A stretch of DNA of 64,000 nt from an uncultured Spirochaetales bacterium. Its GTDB lineage: Bacteria > Spirochaetota > Spirochaetia > Sphaerochaetales > Sphaerochaetaceae. Below the pieces are notes generated by a model, which did no database searches, was not told where the DNA came from, and saw only the letters and a list, made by a program, of their open reading frames with translations. The stretch lies in contig CALXOO010000002.1 of NCBI GenBank assembly GCA_944390045.1, positions 1-64,000 of the forward strand. Direction: 5' to 3'. Positions 57,897 through 63,552 of this stretch are shown here, one piece after another. Made by a program: the position numbers and the translations under genes. Positions within the stretch are counted from its first letter, which is position 1. Every line of letters starts with the position of its first letter.

Positions 57897-57980
57897 AAAG
57901 CCTCCGAAATTGTCAAATCAACCGCCTAACTATATATAACTTCCTATGCCTTAAGCAAGTGTTTGCCTGGAAAGGCAACA

Positions 57981-58009
57981 TTGACAAAAAAAGTGGGCAG
58001 GGTGACAAT
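57981..58009 (+). promoter_or_regulatory. lemA promoter (leaderless type)
   Basis: Consensus TTGACA (57981-57986), exact 17-bp spacer, GACAAT (58004-58009), then 6 nt to the ATG at 58016. Confidence 0.8.
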
Positions 58010-58015
58010 TTCGGC

Positions 58016-58564
58016 ATGATCGTTCTCATTGTGGCACTGGTCATTCTGGCCGTTATAGTCATCTATCTCGTGGCGACCTACAACTCCTTCGTCGGCCTGC
58101 GCAACAAGGCTGAGGAGGCGCTGAGCGCCCTGGATGCCCACCTGAAGCAGCGCTATGACCTGATTCCCAATCTCGTGGAGACAGTCAAGGGCTATGCGAG
58201 GCATGAGGAAGAGACGCTGACCCGGGTGGTCAACGCCCGCAATCAGGCCATGGCCGCGCCTGCTGCCGGAAAGGGCAGGGCCGAGGATGCGCTCTCTGGC
58301 AGCCTGAAGAGCCTGTTCGCCCTGGGTGAGGCCTATCCCGGCCTCAAGGCCGACGCCTCATTCCTGGACCTGCAGCAGAAGCTGGCACGGCTGGAGGATG
58401 ACATCCTCAATGCCCGCAAGTACTACAATGCGATCGCCCGTTCAATGAACGACAAGGTCCAGATGTTCCCCAGCAGTCTGGTGGCAGCTGCCTTCCACTT
58501 CCAGCGTCTGTCATACATAGAAGTGAGCGATGACGAGAGGCGCAATGCAGAGGTGCGCTTTTGA
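58016..58564 (+). CDS. LemA-family protein
   Basis: A 182-residue membrane-anchored protein. One N-terminal helix (MIVLIVALVILAVIVIYLV) is followed by the LemA antiparallel helical bundle: YNSFVGLRNKAEEALSALDAHLKQRYDLIPNLVETVKGYA (key motifs RN, QRYDLIPNLV) and ARKYYNAIARSMNDKVQMFPS. Function unknown; LemA proteins occur with DUF2207 partners, as here. The start is the ATG at 58016, not the GTG at 57959, because the promoter falls between them. It overlaps the next gene by 4 bp. Confidence 0.88.
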   Translation: MIVLIVALVILAVIVIYLVATYNSFVGLRNKAEEALSALDAHLKQRYDLIPNLVETVKGYARHEEETLTRVVNARNQAMAAPAAGKGRAEDALSGSLKSLFALGEAYPGLKADASFLDLQQKLARLEDDILNARKYYNAIARSMNDKVQMFPSSLVAAAFHFQRLSYIEVSDDERRNAEVRF

Positions 58565-60375
58565 AGAGATTAGCCGCGTCCCTCCTTCTGATACTCCTTC
58601 CCCTGGCTCTCTTCGCCGCAGACTATGACATAGTGCGTGCCGACTTCGAGGTGACAGTGACCGAGAACCGCCAGTATCTCATTCATGAGACTCTGGTGTA
58701 TGACTTCCATACGCCGCTTCACGGCATTGTCCGGGAGATACCGCTCAGCGGAGATCTCTCTATAGCGAACATACACGTCGGCGAGGATTTCTCTGTCTCC
58801 GGCAGCGGTTCCTTCGCTTCTGTGCGGATCGGATCTGAGGACGAGCTGGTCGAGGGCGTGCATGAATATGATATCAGCTATACTCTGGATCCGGGACGTG
58901 ACCGCAATGCGGGATATGATGAGGTCCATCTTGATCTCTTTTCCACTTTTGATGAGACCATGGACAATATTTCGTTCTCTGTCGCCATGCCAAAGGACAT
59001 CGATGCCGGAAAGGTCTGGGTCTCATACGGTCCATATGGCAGTACCGAGCGCGCTGAGACACATATCAATGACGGCCGCATAGTCGTGGGAAAGATCGGC
59101 AGTATCGGTCCTGAAAGCGGAATTACCGTGCGCATAGAGCTGTCCGACGGCTACTTTTACTGGAGCGACCATTCTGCCGCCGCCTTCGGTGCGGCAGTCG
59201 TGCTCACGCTCATTCTCCTTATCGTCTATGTCATTCTCTACAGGCGTCACGGGCGCGACGAGAATCCTGTCATCGTCCCGACATTCAGCGCCCCGGACGG
59301 ACTGTCTCCTCTTGACATCGGCTATCTTTTCGACAGCAGGGATGAGACGAAGGACTATGTCTCGATGATTTACTACTGGGCTGATGGCGGCTATCTGACG
59401 ATAGAAGAGGGTGACGAGGGGCACTTCACCCTTCACAGGATAAAGGACCTGCCTGCCGGTGCGAGGGATTATGAGCGGAACCTGTTTGATGCGATCTTCA
59501 GACAGGGGGATGATGCCGATCTGGACAGCCTGAACATATACAGCGACCTGGAACAGAACGTGAAGCCACTCCTGCTGCGCCGCTACAGCAGGGGGGAGTG
59601 CGATCTGTATGACGCAAAGTCGAGGAAGATCTCCTGTGTATGTGTCACTGCCCTGGTTGCCTATGCTGTCCTGATGAGCGTGGCCGTAGCGGTCAATGAC
59701 CTGAGATTCGGGCTTTTCGCCTTCTTCGTGCTTGCGATGCAGTATGTGTTCTCCTCGATGATCCTCTGGTCGCTCAACCGGAAGCTGTCCAACAGGAGAC
59801 AGTACATAACCGGTACCTTCTTCATTATTGTCATAACCCTGGCCAGTCTGCTGCTGATCAATGGAATCTGCACGTCTGCGGGCATCAGCCGCGGCCTCGT
59901 GAGGATAATGTCCGTCGTCATTGTCTGCGGTCTGTCGGTGCTTGCGGCCCTGGCCTTCTCCATAAGCAGGAGAAGTGCCTATGCCCAGGAGATACTTGGC
60001 CGTATCCTCGGCTACCGGGATTTTCTTGAGAATGTTGAAGCTGACAAACTAAGGACGCTGGTCAGGGAGGATCCCCAGTATTTCTACCATAATCTGGCAT
60101 ACGCGATCGTCCTGGATCTCGGCGATGACTGGGTCGGCAAGTTCGACGGCATATTCACACAGCCGGCCAGCTGGTATGCGGGACCTGCCGACATAGTCTC
60201 ATTCCACATCTATTCATCAATGGCACGCAGGATGAACCGCTGTTTCGTCAATACAGTGGCGGCGCCGCCCCAGAGTGCCGCCGGCAGCCGTTTCGGCTCC
60301 ACGTCGGGCTCTCATTCCGGTTTCAGCGGTTTCAGCGGAAGCGGAGCCGGCGGAGGAGGGGCCAGGGGATGGTAG
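58561..60375 (+). CDS. DUF2207-family membrane protein
   Basis: A 604-residue protein. Signal peptide or first helix (MKRLAASLLLILLPLALFAA), then an extracytoplasmic beta-rich DUF2207 domain (about 25-200, VRADFEVTVTENRQYLIHETLVYDF pattern), a helix at about 205-225, a cytoplasmic winged-helix-like part, two or three helices (about 360-480) and a glycine/serine-rich tail (FSGSGAGGGGARGW). This is the usual LemA partner architecture. It starts with a TTG that overlaps the lemA stop codon. It overlaps the next gene by 7 bp. The role is probably in envelope stress or membrane maintenance (inference). Confidence 0.85.
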   Translation: MKRLAASLLLILLPLALFAADYDIVRADFEVTVTENRQYLIHETLVYDFHTPLHGIVREIPLSGDLSIANIHVGEDFSVSGSGSFASVRIGSEDELVEGVHEYDISYTLDPGRDRNAGYDEVHLDLFSTFDETMDNISFSVAMPKDIDAGKVWVSYGPYGSTERAETHINDGRIVVGKIGSIGPESGITVRIELSDGYFYWSDHSAAAFGAAVVLTLILLIVYVILYRRHGRDENPVIVPTFSAPDGLSPLDIGYLFDSRDETKDYVSMIYYWADGGYLTIEEGDEGHFTLHRIKDLPAGARDYERNLFDAIFRQGDDADLDSLNIYSDLEQNVKPLLLRRYSRGECDLYDAKSRKISCVCVTALVAYAVLMSVAVAVNDLRFGLFAFFVLAMQYVFSSMILWSLNRKLSNRRQYITGTFFIIVITLASLLLINGICTSAGISRGLVRIMSVVIVCGLSVLAALAFSISRRSAYAQEILGRILGYRDFLENVEADKLRTLVREDPQYFYHNLAYAIVLDLGDDWVGKFDGIFTQPASWYAGPADIVSFHIYSSMARRMNRCFVNTVAAPPQSAAGSRFGSTSGSHSGFSGFSGSGAGGGGARGW

Positions 60376-61016
60376 CCAGTCAGGATCTCGCGGCGCTCGC
60401 GCTCTCATTCGCATTCATACTTGCCATCGTTGCTGCCGCATTCCTCCTCTACAGATATGCTCATCTGGGAGCTGAGGTGGTGCGCAAGCTGATACATATC
60501 GGGGTGTCGAACTGGGTCTTTATCCTGGTCTTCTGCTTCAGTGATCCCAGAGTGGCCCTGGCCGGTCCTGCTGCCTTCATCATCATCAATGCCGTTTTTG
60601 TATACAGCGGTGCGGCGAGGTTCCTGGGCATGGGGAACAGGAAGCGTGACAATGGCCTTATATATTTTCCCCTTTCGCTGCTGATACTCACTCTGCTGAA
60701 CATACGCGGCCTCATCGCTCCTTATGATGTCATCGCGGGAACCCTGGTCATGGGCTATGGAGACGGGCTTGCGGCCCTGATCGGCAGCCTCTGGGGACGG
60801 CACCAGTATTCTGTCATGAATGCCCGCAAGAGCTGGGAAGGAACCCTTGTCATGTTCTTTGTCTCTCTGGCGGTAGTGCTGATCTTCACGCCATACAGCC
60901 TGACCACCGCTCTTGTCATGGCGCTGGTGGCTGCTTTCTTCGAGGCCGTGACGCCGCTCGGACTTGACAATATCACGGTGCCGCTGCTCACCGTACTGAC
61001 TGGAGTGGTTCTCTGA
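60369..61016 (+). CDS. Phytol/dolichol-kinase-like membrane protein
   Basis: A 215-residue protein with about seven hydrophobic segments, related to the VTE5/SEC59/CdsA-like polyprenol kinase group. Diagnostic blocks: VRKLIHIGVSNW near residue 37, VMGYGDGLAALIGSLWG and KSWEGTLVMF, where CTP-dependent kinases place their nucleotide and lipid-phosphate contacts. Presumed to phosphorylate an isoprenoid alcohol. It overlaps the DUF2207 gene by 7 bp and the next gene by one base, so it is part of the lemA operon. Confidence 0.75.
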   Translation: MVASQDLAALALSFAFILAIVAAAFLLYRYAHLGAEVVRKLIHIGVSNWVFILVFCFSDPRVALAGPAAFIIINAVFVYSGAARFLGMGNRKRDNGLIYFPLSLLILTLLNIRGLIAPYDVIAGTLVMGYGDGLAALIGSLWGRHQYSVMNARKSWEGTLVMFFVSLAVVLIFTPYSLTTALVMALVAAFFEAVTPLGLDNITVPLLTVLTGVVL

Positions 61017-61840
61017 TGGCCTGGATTGACAGCTGGTTCTTTTCTCTGGATTTCCCTCTCAGGCTCGCAGTTGCGGGGCTTGTCATCGTCCTGATCGCCA
61101 TTCTCGCCTGGTGGAAGAGGCAGCTGAGCCCCTCCGGACTCATTGCGGCAATCATCATGGGCCTTGCAAGCACAATGATCGGCGGTTTCTCTTCCCTTTC
61201 CCTCTACCTTTTCTTCCTGCTTTCCGCCGCTGTCATCGGACGCCTCTCCGCAAGGATCTCCGGACTGGGAAAAATACACAAGAAAGGCGGCAGGAGGGAC
61301 TGGCTGCAGGTCCTAGCAAACGGCGGACCCGCGCTTGCCGCGATGTTCCTGTACCATGCATCAGGGGATGCGGTGTTTCTGGTCGTGTTCGCCGCCAGTC
61401 TCGGTGAGGCCTGTGCTGACACATGGGCGAGTGAGATCGGCGTGCTGTCGGGAAAGCCTCCCGTCTCGATCCTGACATTCACTCCAGTTCCCCGCGGCCT
61501 GTCCGGCGGGGTCAGCCTGCTGGGCACGTCCGCAAGTCTGCTGTGTGCGCTTCTCTATGCGCTCTTCTCCTTCTCTCTCTATGCCGCACCGCCGGCCCAT
61601 TGCGCCATTGTCGCGCTCTCGGCCTTTGCCGGCATGCTGGCCGACTCCTTTCTCGGTGCGACAGTGCAGGCGCATTATTACAATGAAGAGGAGGATCTCA
61701 TCACTGAACACAGCCGCGGCAGGGACGGCAGGAAGCTGCGCCTCGTGCGTGGAATCAGGTTCCTGGACAACGATATGGTCAACCTGACCAGCAATGTCAT
61801 TGCATTCCTGCTCTGTTTTTGTCTCTGTTGTCTGTTTTAA
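61016..61840 (+). CDS. DUF92-family membrane protein (VTE6-like)
   Basis: A 274-residue protein with about seven hydrophobic segments. DUF92 blocks: [60 protein letters not shown] and the late [13 protein letters not shown]. The plant and cyanobacterial member VTE6 is a phytyl-phosphate kinase. Following directly after a VTE5-like kinase, it would turn a prenyl monophosphate into the diphosphate. The native lipid in a spirochaete is unknown. Start overlaps the previous stop (TGATG). Confidence 0.85.
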
Positions 61841-61923: not shown

Positions 61924-63552
61924 ATGGCTAAACAGCTTCAATTCAATGAGGAGGCCCGCAAGTCGCTTGTCAACGGAGTCGAGAAGATCTCCAAGGCTGT
62001 CATGACTACACTTGGACCCAAGGGACGCCTGGTCCTGCTGGACAAGAAATATGGTGCACCGACAGTGACCAAGGACGGTGTCTCCGTAGCCAAGGAAATC
62101 GAGCTCGAGGATCCCTTTGAGAACATGGGTGCCCAGCTTCTCAAGGAAGTTGCCTCAAAGACCAACGATGTCGCTGGAGACGGAACCACAACCGCCACAG
62201 TCCTGGCCTGGGCCATTACCAAGGAAGGAATGAAGAGTGTTGCCAGCGGTGTCAATCCGATGGGCATCAGAAGGGGTGTGGATGCCGCCGTCGCAGATGC
62301 TGTCGAGGAGATCAGGAAGCAGGCGAAGACAATCCAGGAGAAGGAAGAGATCGCACAGGTTGCTTCTATCAGCGCCAACAATGACAGATCCATCGGTGAT
62401 GAGATCGCCAACGCGATGGACAAGGTCGGAAAGGACGGAGTCATCACGGTCGAGGAGTCCAAGACAATTGAGACCACAGTCGATTTCGTTGAGGGCATGC
62501 AGTTCGACCGCGGTTACCTTTCCGCATATTTCTGCAACAACCGCGACACCATGACAAGTGTGATGGACAATCCCTACATCCTGATCTATGACAAGAAGAT
62601 CAGCAACATGAAGGATCTCCTGCCCATCCTGGAGAAAGTCCTCCAGACAGGCAAGGGTCTGCTGATCATCGCCGAGGATGTGGACGGCGAGGCTCTCACG
62701 ACTCTCGTCCTCAACTCTGTCAGGGGAACCCTGAACGTGGTTGCCGTCAAGGCTCCGGGCTTCGGTGACAGGAGAAAGGCTATGCTTGAGGATATCGCAA
62801 TCCTGACAGGCGGCCAGGTCATCACCGAGGAGCTTGGAATGAAGCTCGAGAACGCAGATATCTCAATGCTCGGACGTGCCAAGAGCGTCAAGGTCGAGAA
62901 GGAGAACACGACAATCATCTCCGGAGCCGGCTCTCAGGAGGCCATCCGTGACAGGATCGCCCAGATCAAGGGACAGATCCTTGACTCCACAAGCGAGTAT
63001 GACAAGGAGAAGCTCCAGGAGAGGCTCGCCAAGCTTGCAGGCGGTGTTGCCCTGATCAATGTCGGTGCCGCGACCGAGGTCGAGCTGAAGGAGAAGAAGC
63101 ACCGTGTCGAGGACGCCCTCTCAGCCACCAGGGCCGCAATCGAGGAAGGTGTCATTCCCGGCGGCGGTGTCGCTCTGGTGCAGGCCGCTGTCGAGATGGA
63201 GAAGAAGGATCTCTCGAAGCTCGGTGAGGACGAGAAGATCGGCTACAACATTGTCAAGAGAGCCCTTGAGGAGCCTATCAGGCAGATCGCTGCCAATGCC
63301 GGACTTGACGGTGCTGTCATCGCTGACCACTGCAAGAACGAGAAGAAGGGTGTGGGCTTCGACGCCAATGCCATGAAGTGGGTCAACATGGTTGATGCCG
63401 GAATCATCGATCCTGCGAAGGTCACACGCTCTGCACTGCAGAACGCTGCTTCCATCGCGGCCCTGATCCTGACAACAGAGTGTGCTGTCACTGACATTCC
63501 CGCACCGGAGCCCCCGGCTCCCGCAGCCGGAATGAACGGCGGCATGATGTAA
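61924..63552 (+). CDS. groEL: Chaperonin GroEL (60 kDa)
   Basis: Folds proteins in an ATP-driven double ring. The 542-residue protein shows the GroEL nucleotide and apical motifs: [28 protein letters not shown], the GVITVEES region, [15 protein letters not shown] and the Gly/Met-rich tail (MNGGMM). AAGGAG lies upstream of the ATG at 61924. No groES next to it; the co-chaperonin must be elsewhere. Ends at a strong terminator. Confidence 0.98.

What the first reader, a model, noticed from the sequence alone, without database searches (positions are those of the whole stretch)
60369..61840. Tandem VTE5-like and VTE6-like genes in a non-photosynthetic bacterium
In plants VTE5 phosphorylates phytol and VTE6 (DUF92) adds the second phosphate for tocopherol synthesis. 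Here the two homologues are adjacent and overlapping, behind lemA/DUF2207. A spirochaete has no chlorophyll-derived phytol of its own, so the pair may recycle another prenol (for example host or diet phytol, geranylgeraniol or undecaprenol).
Basis: partly seen in the sequence, partly recalled or inferred. Interest (0 to 1): 0.55.

Follow-up and report, generated by a model that had tools for sequence, protein, structure and literature searches.

The report
Prenol-salvage kinase pair in spirochaetes
Two overlapping genes in an uncultured spirochaete look like the two enzymes that turn loose prenyl alcohols back into usable building blocks, and they sit in bacteria that seem to have lost the usual enzyme for making that building block themselves.

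Summary
At 60369-61016 lies a 215-aa VTE5/SEC59-like membrane protein, and at 61016-61840 a DUF92 (VTE6 family) protein (PF01940, E 1.9e-62). They overlap by one base and follow lemA/DUF2207.

The pair is not a curiosity of one genome. In 35 of 36 DUF92-bearing family genomes the two genes are neighbours; in the 36th the contig starts inside DUF92. It also occurs, adjacent or fused, in Clostridia and Mollicutes, in places beside squalene/phytoene synthase or UbiA genes.

Phytol, tocopherol and quinone roles are unlikely here: 0 of 16 genomes of the window's genus have UbiA or squalene/phytoene synthase.

Unexpectedly, the genus (16 of 16) has no recognisable trans-prenyl diphosphate synthase (PF00348), yet keeps UppS, which needs such a primer, and IspH. 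In the family, 36 of 37 genomes lack the presumed short-chain type; 22 of 24 outgroup genomes have it.

Best reading: a CTP-dependent two-step prenol salvage cassette (farnesol or geranylgeraniol to diphosphate) that primes undecaprenyl phosphate synthesis. Enzymology is inferred, not shown.

The parts
57959..58564 (+). LemA family membrane protein, first gene of the overlapping run (an in-frame ATG at 58016 may be the true start)
   Evidence: PF04011 E 1.7e-48; sequence
58561..60375 (+). DUF2207 membrane protein; overlaps lemA and the VTE5-like gene
   Evidence: PF09972 E 3.5e-18, PF20990 E 3.4e-23; junctions read
60369..61016 (+). VTE5/SEC59-like predicted CTP-dependent prenol kinase, 215 aa; invariant R39 K40 H43, D132, A135, G139, G158, E192, D200 N201
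   Evidence: ORF; 42-row alignment; model, CdsA fold; motif aligned with CdsA; no Pfam model
61016..61840 (+). DUF92/VTE6-like predicted CTP-dependent prenyl-phosphate kinase, 274 aa; invariant R94, N102, D135, D210, N252, N256
   Evidence: PF01940 E 1.9e-62; 46-row alignment; model and folds
61924..63552 (+). groEL, frequent downstream neighbour (a neighbour, not part of the pathway)
   Evidence: TIGR02348 E 8.6e-253; GroEL cluster in 39 of 81 neighbourhoods, at +1 in 30

Best explanation
The two genes encode a membrane-bound two-step salvage route. The VTE5-like protein transfers a phosphate from CTP to a free prenyl alcohol, most likely farnesol or geranylgeraniol. The DUF92 protein adds the second phosphate. 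The product (FPP or GGPP) serves as the allylic primer for UppS, which extends it with IPP from the MEP pathway to the undecaprenyl carrier of the cell envelope. In the window's genus, and nearly all its family, the short-chain trans-prenyl diphosphate synthase that normally makes this primer appears to be lost, so the cell would depend on prenols from its surroundings. Shown: gene anatomy, family membership of DUF92, conservation of the pair, motifs, predicted folds, presence and absence of pathway genes by profile search. Inferred: enzyme activity, nucleotide, substrate, direction of flux, chain-length class of the synthases, dependence on outside prenols.
For: (1) The pair is kept together: 35 of 36 DUF92-bearing family genomes; adjacent in 58 and fused in 4 of 80 named loci. 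(2) The VTE5-like family keeps the RK..H clamp described for PfPolK (PMC10849223) in 42 of 42 rows and a D-x-x-A-x-x-x-G ... K-S-x-x-G motif that aligns with that of the lineage's own CdsA (P 0.0008); its four best PDB chains are CdsA (Foldseek prob 0.95-0.99; Z 8.7). DUF92's nearest solved folds include an archaeal membrane-lipid enzyme, 5guf (Z 7.5), and CdsA (Z 6.1). (3) Isoprenoid context elsewhere: SQS_PSY directly upstream in Soehngenia and Eubacterium, a phytoene-desaturase-like oxidase one gene further in Eubacterium, UbiA two genes before the fused form in an Oscillospiraceae MAG; SQS_PSY within 1 kb of the pair in outgroup G052. (4) PF00348 is absent in 16 of 16 genomes of the genus and 30 of 37 of the family; UppS is present in 35 of 37, IspH in 37 of 37. 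Six of the seven PF00348-positive family genomes hold only the type that in this set occurs with UbiA in 19 of 19 genomes; so 36 of 37 lack the other types, which 22 of 24 outgroup genomes have. (5) The only family genome without the pair (G027) also lacks UppS and PF00348. (6) dxr is the second gene after uppS in the own genome. (7) In 25 of 36 family genomes ispH is on the same contig within about 25 kb.
Against: No activity has been measured. Eight of the 61 genomes carry DUF92 and some PF00348 gene, and all 11 clostridial-type pair-bearers searched have PF00348, so the pair is not merely a substitute. PF00348 is also missing without the pair: G037 and G038 (81% and 91% complete), and 9 of 14 PF00348-negative genomes of the phylum sample, two of them at least 90% complete (G081, G145). 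G016 has UbiA but no PF00348, which hints that single absences can be assembly gaps. The association is dominated by one family, so the Fisher values overstate independence. Thirteen of 24 outgroup genomes have a distant VTE5-like gene without DUF92, so a lone member has some other use. S. aureus survives without IspA and HepT, so an unrecognised primer source can exist (PMC12345219). Profile-profile scores against CdsA are weak (prob 24 and 9). DUF92 scores below the cut-off of TIGR00297. No outside source or uptake of prenols has been shown.
Confidence: 0.48

Rival explanations
1. The primer for UppS is made inside the cell by an enzyme not recognised by PF00348, or UppS itself starts from DMAPP. 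The kinase pair then only recovers leaked prenols or serves another minor pool.
For: S. aureus lacking ispA and hepT is viable and a third enzyme is postulated (PMC12345219, passages). UppS of PF00348-negative genomes looks ordinary (14 rows) and could have changed primer use without visible motif change.
Against: The same paper states that UppS of other bacteria does not use DMAPP. Only one UppS-family match per genome was found. All 35 UppS-bearing family genomes have DUF92, and the one family genome without the pair also lacks UppS and PF00348 (G027).
Confidence: 0.27
2. The pair recycles polyprenols such as undecaprenol: the VTE5-like protein stands in for the DgkA-type undecaprenol kinase, and DUF92 has an auxiliary role.
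For: PF01219 (DgkA/UdpK) is missing in 16 of 16 genomes of the genus and 36 of 37 of the family. SEC59 is named dolichol kinase (PMC5898192 passage).
Against: Undecaprenyl phosphate needs one phosphate only, so a strictly co-conserved second kinase is unexplained. PF01219 is also absent in 20 of 24 outgroup genomes, all but one of the 24 without DUF92. The terpenoid neighbours found in Clostridia use FPP or GGPP.
Confidence: 0.13
3. The pair is a lipid-head module: the VTE5-like protein is a CTP-dependent diacylglycerol kinase and DUF92 a cytidylyltransferase of CdsA type.
For: Nearest folds are CdsA and the archaeal lipid enzyme 5guf; CTP-dependent diacylglycerol kinases are known in this superfamily (recalled, no call).
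Against: The genome has its own CdsA next to uppS (L169 7440-8288, PF01148 E 8.8e-55). DUF92's characterised member VTE6 is a prenyl-phosphate kinase (PMC9782597 passage). Terpenoid genes are neighbours in some Clostridia.
Confidence: 0.07
4. Phytol salvage for tocopherol or phylloquinone as in plants.
For: Family names; plant-rich habitats in several MAG titles of relatives (rumen).
Against: No UbiA-family enzyme in 16 of 16 genomes of the genus, so no known enzyme could prenylate a tocopherol or quinone precursor.
Confidence: 0.02

Closest known systems
Arabidopsis VTE5 (phytol kinase) and VTE6 (phytyl-phosphate kinase)
   Same: Same two predicted chemical steps; DUF92 family shared with VTE6 (COG1836, PMC9782597 and PMC3223725 passages)
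   Different: Here the genes are overlapping neighbours in a bacterium without UbiA; likely product sink is UppS. No direct alignment with plant VTE5 was made
Archaeal SEC59-DUF92 fusion Mbar_A3310 (arCOG02245; PMC5898192)
   Same: Same two domains in the same order; authors proposed an isoprenoid kinase step and noted linkage of COG1836 to uppS
   Different: Fused and archaeal; the published proposal rests on similarity and linkage, not on loss of the primer synthase
PfPolK, prenol kinase of malaria parasites (PMC10849223)
   Same: First step, RK..H clamp, salvage of farnesol and geranylgeraniol
   Different: No DUF92 partner described in the passages read; the parasite's MEP pathway supplies its own FPP and GGPP
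CdsA (PDB 4q2e/4q2g) and archaeal lipid enzyme PDB 5guf (CarS, name recalled)
   Same: Nearest solved folds; aligned Asp motif with CdsA
   Different: Enzymes of phospholipid synthesis; the genome has a separate CdsA
S. aureus ispA hepT mutants (PMC12345219)
   Same: UppS working without the known FPP-forming enzymes
   Different: A laboratory mutant; no salvage pair is described in the passages read

Membership tests
VTE5/SEC59/PolK prenol kinases (COG0170 group) | Arg-Lys-x-x-His clamp (described for PfPolK, PMC10849223) | tested here: met
   R39, K40, H43 invariant in 42 of 42 rows
VTE5/SEC59/PolK prenol kinases (COG0170 group) | CTP-site motif D-x-x-A-x-x-x-G with following K-S-x-x-G (motif for this group recalled) | tested here: met
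   D132, A135, G139, G158 invariant, K154 nearly invariant; aligned with the CdsA motif
VTE5/SEC59/PolK prenol kinases (COG0170 group) | CdsA-like intramembrane fold | tested here: met
   AlphaFold2 pLDDT 94.4; four top Foldseek rows are CdsA, prob 0.95-0.99, E 0.055-0.15; Z 8.7 and 8.3 against 6.9 for the next entry. Moderate scores for a helical protein, none at E <= 0.001
VTE5/SEC59/PolK prenol kinases (COG0170 group) | Match to a curated family profile | tested here: inconclusive
   No Pfam or NCBIfam match; whether those libraries hold a bacterial VTE5 model was not established
VTE5/SEC59/PolK prenol kinases (COG0170 group) | Direct sequence similarity to characterised plant or cyanobacterial VTE5 | not tested
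VTE5/SEC59/PolK prenol kinases (COG0170 group) | CTP-dependent prenol kinase activity | not testable with these tools
   needs enzyme assay
DUF92 / COG1836 (VTE6 family) | PF01940 above curated cut-off | tested here: met
   211.3 bits, cut-off 27.5
DUF92 / COG1836 (VTE6 family) | Two conserved aspartates as in cytidylyltransferases (PMC5898192) | tested here: met
   D135 and D210 invariant in 46 of 46 rows; D135 aligned with the CdsA motif Asp
DUF92 / COG1836 (VTE6 family) | CdsA-like fold | tested here: inconclusive
   VIA-align Z 7.5 (5guf) and 6.1 (CdsA) among unrelated helical proteins of similar Z; Foldseek E about 0.5
TIGR00297 (hypothetical equivalog inside DUF92) | Score above 205.85 bits | tested here: not met
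   114 bits; therefore not filed as TIGR00297
DUF92 / COG1836 (VTE6 family) | Prenyl-phosphate kinase activity | not testable with these tools
   needs enzyme assay

The most novel reading that the evidence does not exclude
An entire bacterial family (Sphaerochaetaceae-type spirochaetes, including the window's genus) has lost the enzyme that starts polyprenyl synthesis and is prenol-auxotrophic: it scavenges farnesol or geranylgeraniol made by other organisms and activates it with this kinase pair to prime its cell-envelope carrier lipid.
Probability: 0.33. Interest if true: 0.82.

Novelty: new variant of a known kind. Interest (0 to 1): 0.6.

Why it matters
[quoted passage not shown] How isoprenoid synthesis starts without IspA is called uncertain in PMC12345219 (passages). 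A cultured lineage that naturally lacks the primer synthase but carries a compact two-gene salvage cassette would let both be tested directly, and would point to exchange of prenols between microbes as a nutritional dependency.

Tried and rejected
Phytol/tocopherol/quinone role: rejected for this genus because UbiA and SQS_PSY were not found. 'The VTE5-like protein is the genome's CdsA': rejected, CdsA is elsewhere. Viral occurrence: one viral-contig scan gave no relative. A specific link to LemA/DUF2207 or GroEL: these neighbours are lineage-specific (DUF2207 cluster in 43, GroEL in 39, LemA in 37 of 81 neighbourhoods, none in the 30 non-spirochaete loci), so I treat them as context. Solved structures by sequence: none for either protein. 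Foldseek for DUF92 was weak (E about 0.5, rank 1 a GPCR complex). A direct VTE5-DUF92 profile comparison was weak (prob 10.6), although D132 and D135 line up. The tree of the pair (58 rows, quick method) needs 7 changes of the PF00348 label, at least 4 forced by starred branches; it is a gene tree with long branches, so it does not count losses on a species tree. The PF00348 tree (quick method) has 19 of 40 inner branches weakly supported; its deepest split is starred, the quinone-type clade has 93. Association tests are not corrected for kinship. Literature: the ten searches listed no paper on this pair in spirochaetes or on missing FPP synthase in Sphaerochaeta; the lists were capped, and only open-licence PMC papers are held. 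Papers seen: PMC9782597, PMC10849223, PMC3223725, PMC5898192, PMC7580956, PMC12345219, PMC6284720, PMC3726837 as passages, plus whole sections of PMC10849223 (section 6) and PMC5898192 (section 11); all others as listings only.
Full report
What is there. The window holds an overlapping run on the + strand: lemA (57959-58564), DUF2207 (58561-60375), a 215-aa membrane protein (60369-61016) and a 274-aa DUF92 protein (61016-61840), followed after 83 bases by groEL. The three junctions inside the run are overlaps of four, seven and one bases, as expected of one transcript read with coupled translation (inference). DUF92 is certain by PF01940 (E 1.9e-62). It does not reach the cut-off of the narrower TIGR00297 (114 of 205.85 bits). 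The 215-aa protein matches no curated model, so the VTE5 label is a reading from motifs and fold.

Motifs and folds. Over 42 rows the VTE5-like protein keeps R39, K40 and H43, the Arg-Lys-His clamp described for the malaria prenol kinase (PMC10849223, section read), and D132-x-x-A135-x-x-x-G139 followed by K154 (nearly invariant) and G158. Profile alignment with CdsA proteins of spirochaetes places this stretch on the CdsA motif (P 0.0008, probability only 24). The AlphaFold2 model (pLDDT 94.4) finds CdsA as its four best PDB chains (Foldseek probability 0.95-0.99, E 0.055-0.15; Z 8.7 against 6.9 for the next entry outside CdsA). DUF92 (pLDDT 95.3) keeps D135 and D210 in 46 of 46 rows. By VIA-align its closest solved fold is 5guf, an archaeal membrane-lipid enzyme (Z 7.5), with CdsA further down (Z 6.1), mixed with unrelated helical proteins; Foldseek alone was weak. 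A published HHpred link of DUF92 to pfam01148, with conserved aspartates (PMC5898192, section read), agrees with this.

How conserved the pair is. Among 61 genomes (own plus 60 relatives), DUF92 occurs in 37: 36 of 37 of the window's family f1 and one other, G052. In 35 of the 36 family genomes the VTE5-like gene lies beside it on the same strand; the 36th, G014, is cut at a contig start. In the loci read, a four-base overlap is common. Of the 24 non-family genomes, 13 have a distant VTE5-like match (E 2e-4 to 9e-13) without DUF92, one (G052) has a close match with DUF92, and 10 have neither. In 80 named DUF92 loci the partner is adjacent in 58, fused in 4 and not found in 18. Of the 18, three (L103, L112, L117) begin at or just before DUF92, and 12 are Bacillus-type genomes where DUF92 follows a gene clustering with a 5-FTHF cyclo-ligase. 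The nearest named relatives are uncultured Spirochaetales, Candidatus Aphodenecus pullistercoris and, further off, Sphaerochaeta species. I therefore call f1 'Sphaerochaetaceae-type'; the group codes themselves carry no names.

Neighbours. In spirochaetes the pair often sits between DUF2207 and groEL. IspH, the last MEP enzyme, is on the same contig within about 25 kb in 25 of 36 family genomes, 5 to 6 kb away in the two single-contig ones (G017, G036) and 4 kb away in the own genome, just beyond the window. In Soehngenia and Eubacterium callanderi the gene directly before the pair is a squalene/phytoene synthase (a Tissierellales MAG has a relative of it at the same place), and Eubacterium has a phytoene-desaturase-like oxidase before that; in an Oscillospiraceae MAG the fused form follows a glycosyltransferase and, before it, a UbiA enzyme. 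In outgroup G052 a squalene/phytoene synthase lies within 1 kb. In nine other loci only one to five neighbours each were scanned; apart from one tocopherol-cyclase-like gene they showed no terpenoid family (L094, L105, L109, L126, L129, L131, L135; and in spirochaetes L071, L072).

Which sinks exist here. In the genus of the window (16 genomes) UbiA is found in 0, SQS_PSY in 0 and PF01219 in 0. That removes quinones, tocopherol, carotenoids and squalene as known sinks. UppS is found in 16 of 16 and IspH in 16 of 16; cdsA and dxr follow uppS in the own genome.

The missing synthase. PF00348 (trans-prenyl diphosphate synthases) is found in 0 of 16 genomes of the genus and 7 of 37 of the family, against 22 of 24 outside it; the search rang in 14 of 14 control genomes. 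All 43 PF00348 matches were fetched and placed on a tree. One clade of 19 rows from 19 genomes (HxA(S/T)LxHDD-like motif in 18) occurs only in genomes that also have UbiA, 19 of 19; four genomes have UbiA without it (G016, G037, G040, and G051 below the cut-off). I infer that it makes quinone side chains. The seven PF00348-positive family genomes all have this type, and only G031 has another. Outside the family each of the 22 PF00348-positive genomes has a member of the other clades, which I take to be short-chain; G049 sits there on a very long branch, and G059 sits there despite a quinone-type motif. So 36 of 37 family genomes lack the type that the outgroups use, while 35 of 37 keep UppS (not found in G020 and G027). 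Sphaerochaeta halotolerans, a cultured species, has the pair and one PF00348 gene with the quinone-type motif. In two searches of 247 genomes of the phylum (same totals, taken to be the same sample), PF00348 is absent in 14; of the 7 that are at least 90% complete, 5 are family members with DUF92 and 2 are not. Fisher p for that table is 1.6e-6, but the five share a family, so this is not independent evidence. Among 29 further genomes reached through named loci PF00348 is found in 20: all 11 clostridial-type pair-bearers, five lone-DUF92 genomes, Spirochaeta L109 and three Sphaerochaeta-type (one only a fragment below the cut-off); it is not found in seven spirochaete MAGs and in two Mollicute pair-bearers, L126 and L131, the latter a complete chromosome. 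Wall-less bacteria may lack it for other reasons.

Mechanism proposed. Free farnesol or geranylgeraniol enters the membrane; the VTE5-like protein adds one phosphate from CTP, DUF92 the second, and UppS extends the diphosphate. UppS of 14 PF00348-negative family genomes has ordinary length and keeps a second conserved stretch, R-x-x-G-E-x-R-x-S-(N/G)-F, in 14 of 14. UppS of other bacteria is reported not to start from DMAPP (PMC12345219, passage). The one family genome without the pair, G027 (1.2 Mb, 95% complete), also lacks UppS and PF00348 but keeps IspH. This is what one expects if the pair serves UppS, but it is a single genome. The dependence on outside prenols follows only if no hidden synthase exists, and S. 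aureus shows that such hidden sources can exist (PMC12345219, passages).

Known or new. The two enzyme families are known, and their fusion is published for archaea with a proposed isoprenoid role (PMC5898192). COG1836 was tied to phytol phosphate metabolism in 2011 (PMC3223725, table row). New, as far as my ten literature searches go (listed under Tried and rejected), are the family-wide co-conservation in spirochaetes, the loss of the primer synthase beside a kept UppS, and the resulting testable dependency.

Noticed in passing
L126 3230-8019 (Acholeplasmataceae MAG UBA6190): The pair is flanked by a heliorhodopsin, a tocopherol-cyclase-family protein (PF14249, E 1.6e-17) and a photolyase, in a genome where PF00348 was not found. 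A tocopherol-cyclase-like gene beside VTE5/VTE6-like genes in a Mollicute is odd.
   Followed up: no
G027 (family member, 1.2 Mb): UppS, PF00348 and the kinase pair were not found but IspH was; possibly a spirochaete without any polyprenyl carrier lipid.
   Followed up: partly
G032 C61 and C28: Two copies of the pair: one groups with other spirochaetes, the other with Clostridia on the tree, suggesting horizontal transfer.
   Followed up: partly
L109, L119, L135, L136, L141, L145: VTE5-like and DUF92 domains fused in a single ORF, in spirochaetes and in Lachnospiraceae/Oscillospiraceae MAGs.
   Followed up: partly
window 57981-58009: Promoter-like TTGACA-17-GACAAT just before an in-frame ATG of lemA at 58016, 57 bases after the listed start; the true lemA start may be there.
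   Followed up: no
L121-L124, L127, L132-L134, L137-L140 (Bacillus-type genomes): DUF92 stands without a VTE5-like neighbour, directly after a gene clustering with a 5-formyltetrahydrofolate cyclo-ligase, in 12 loci; its partner kinase there is unknown.
   Followed up: no
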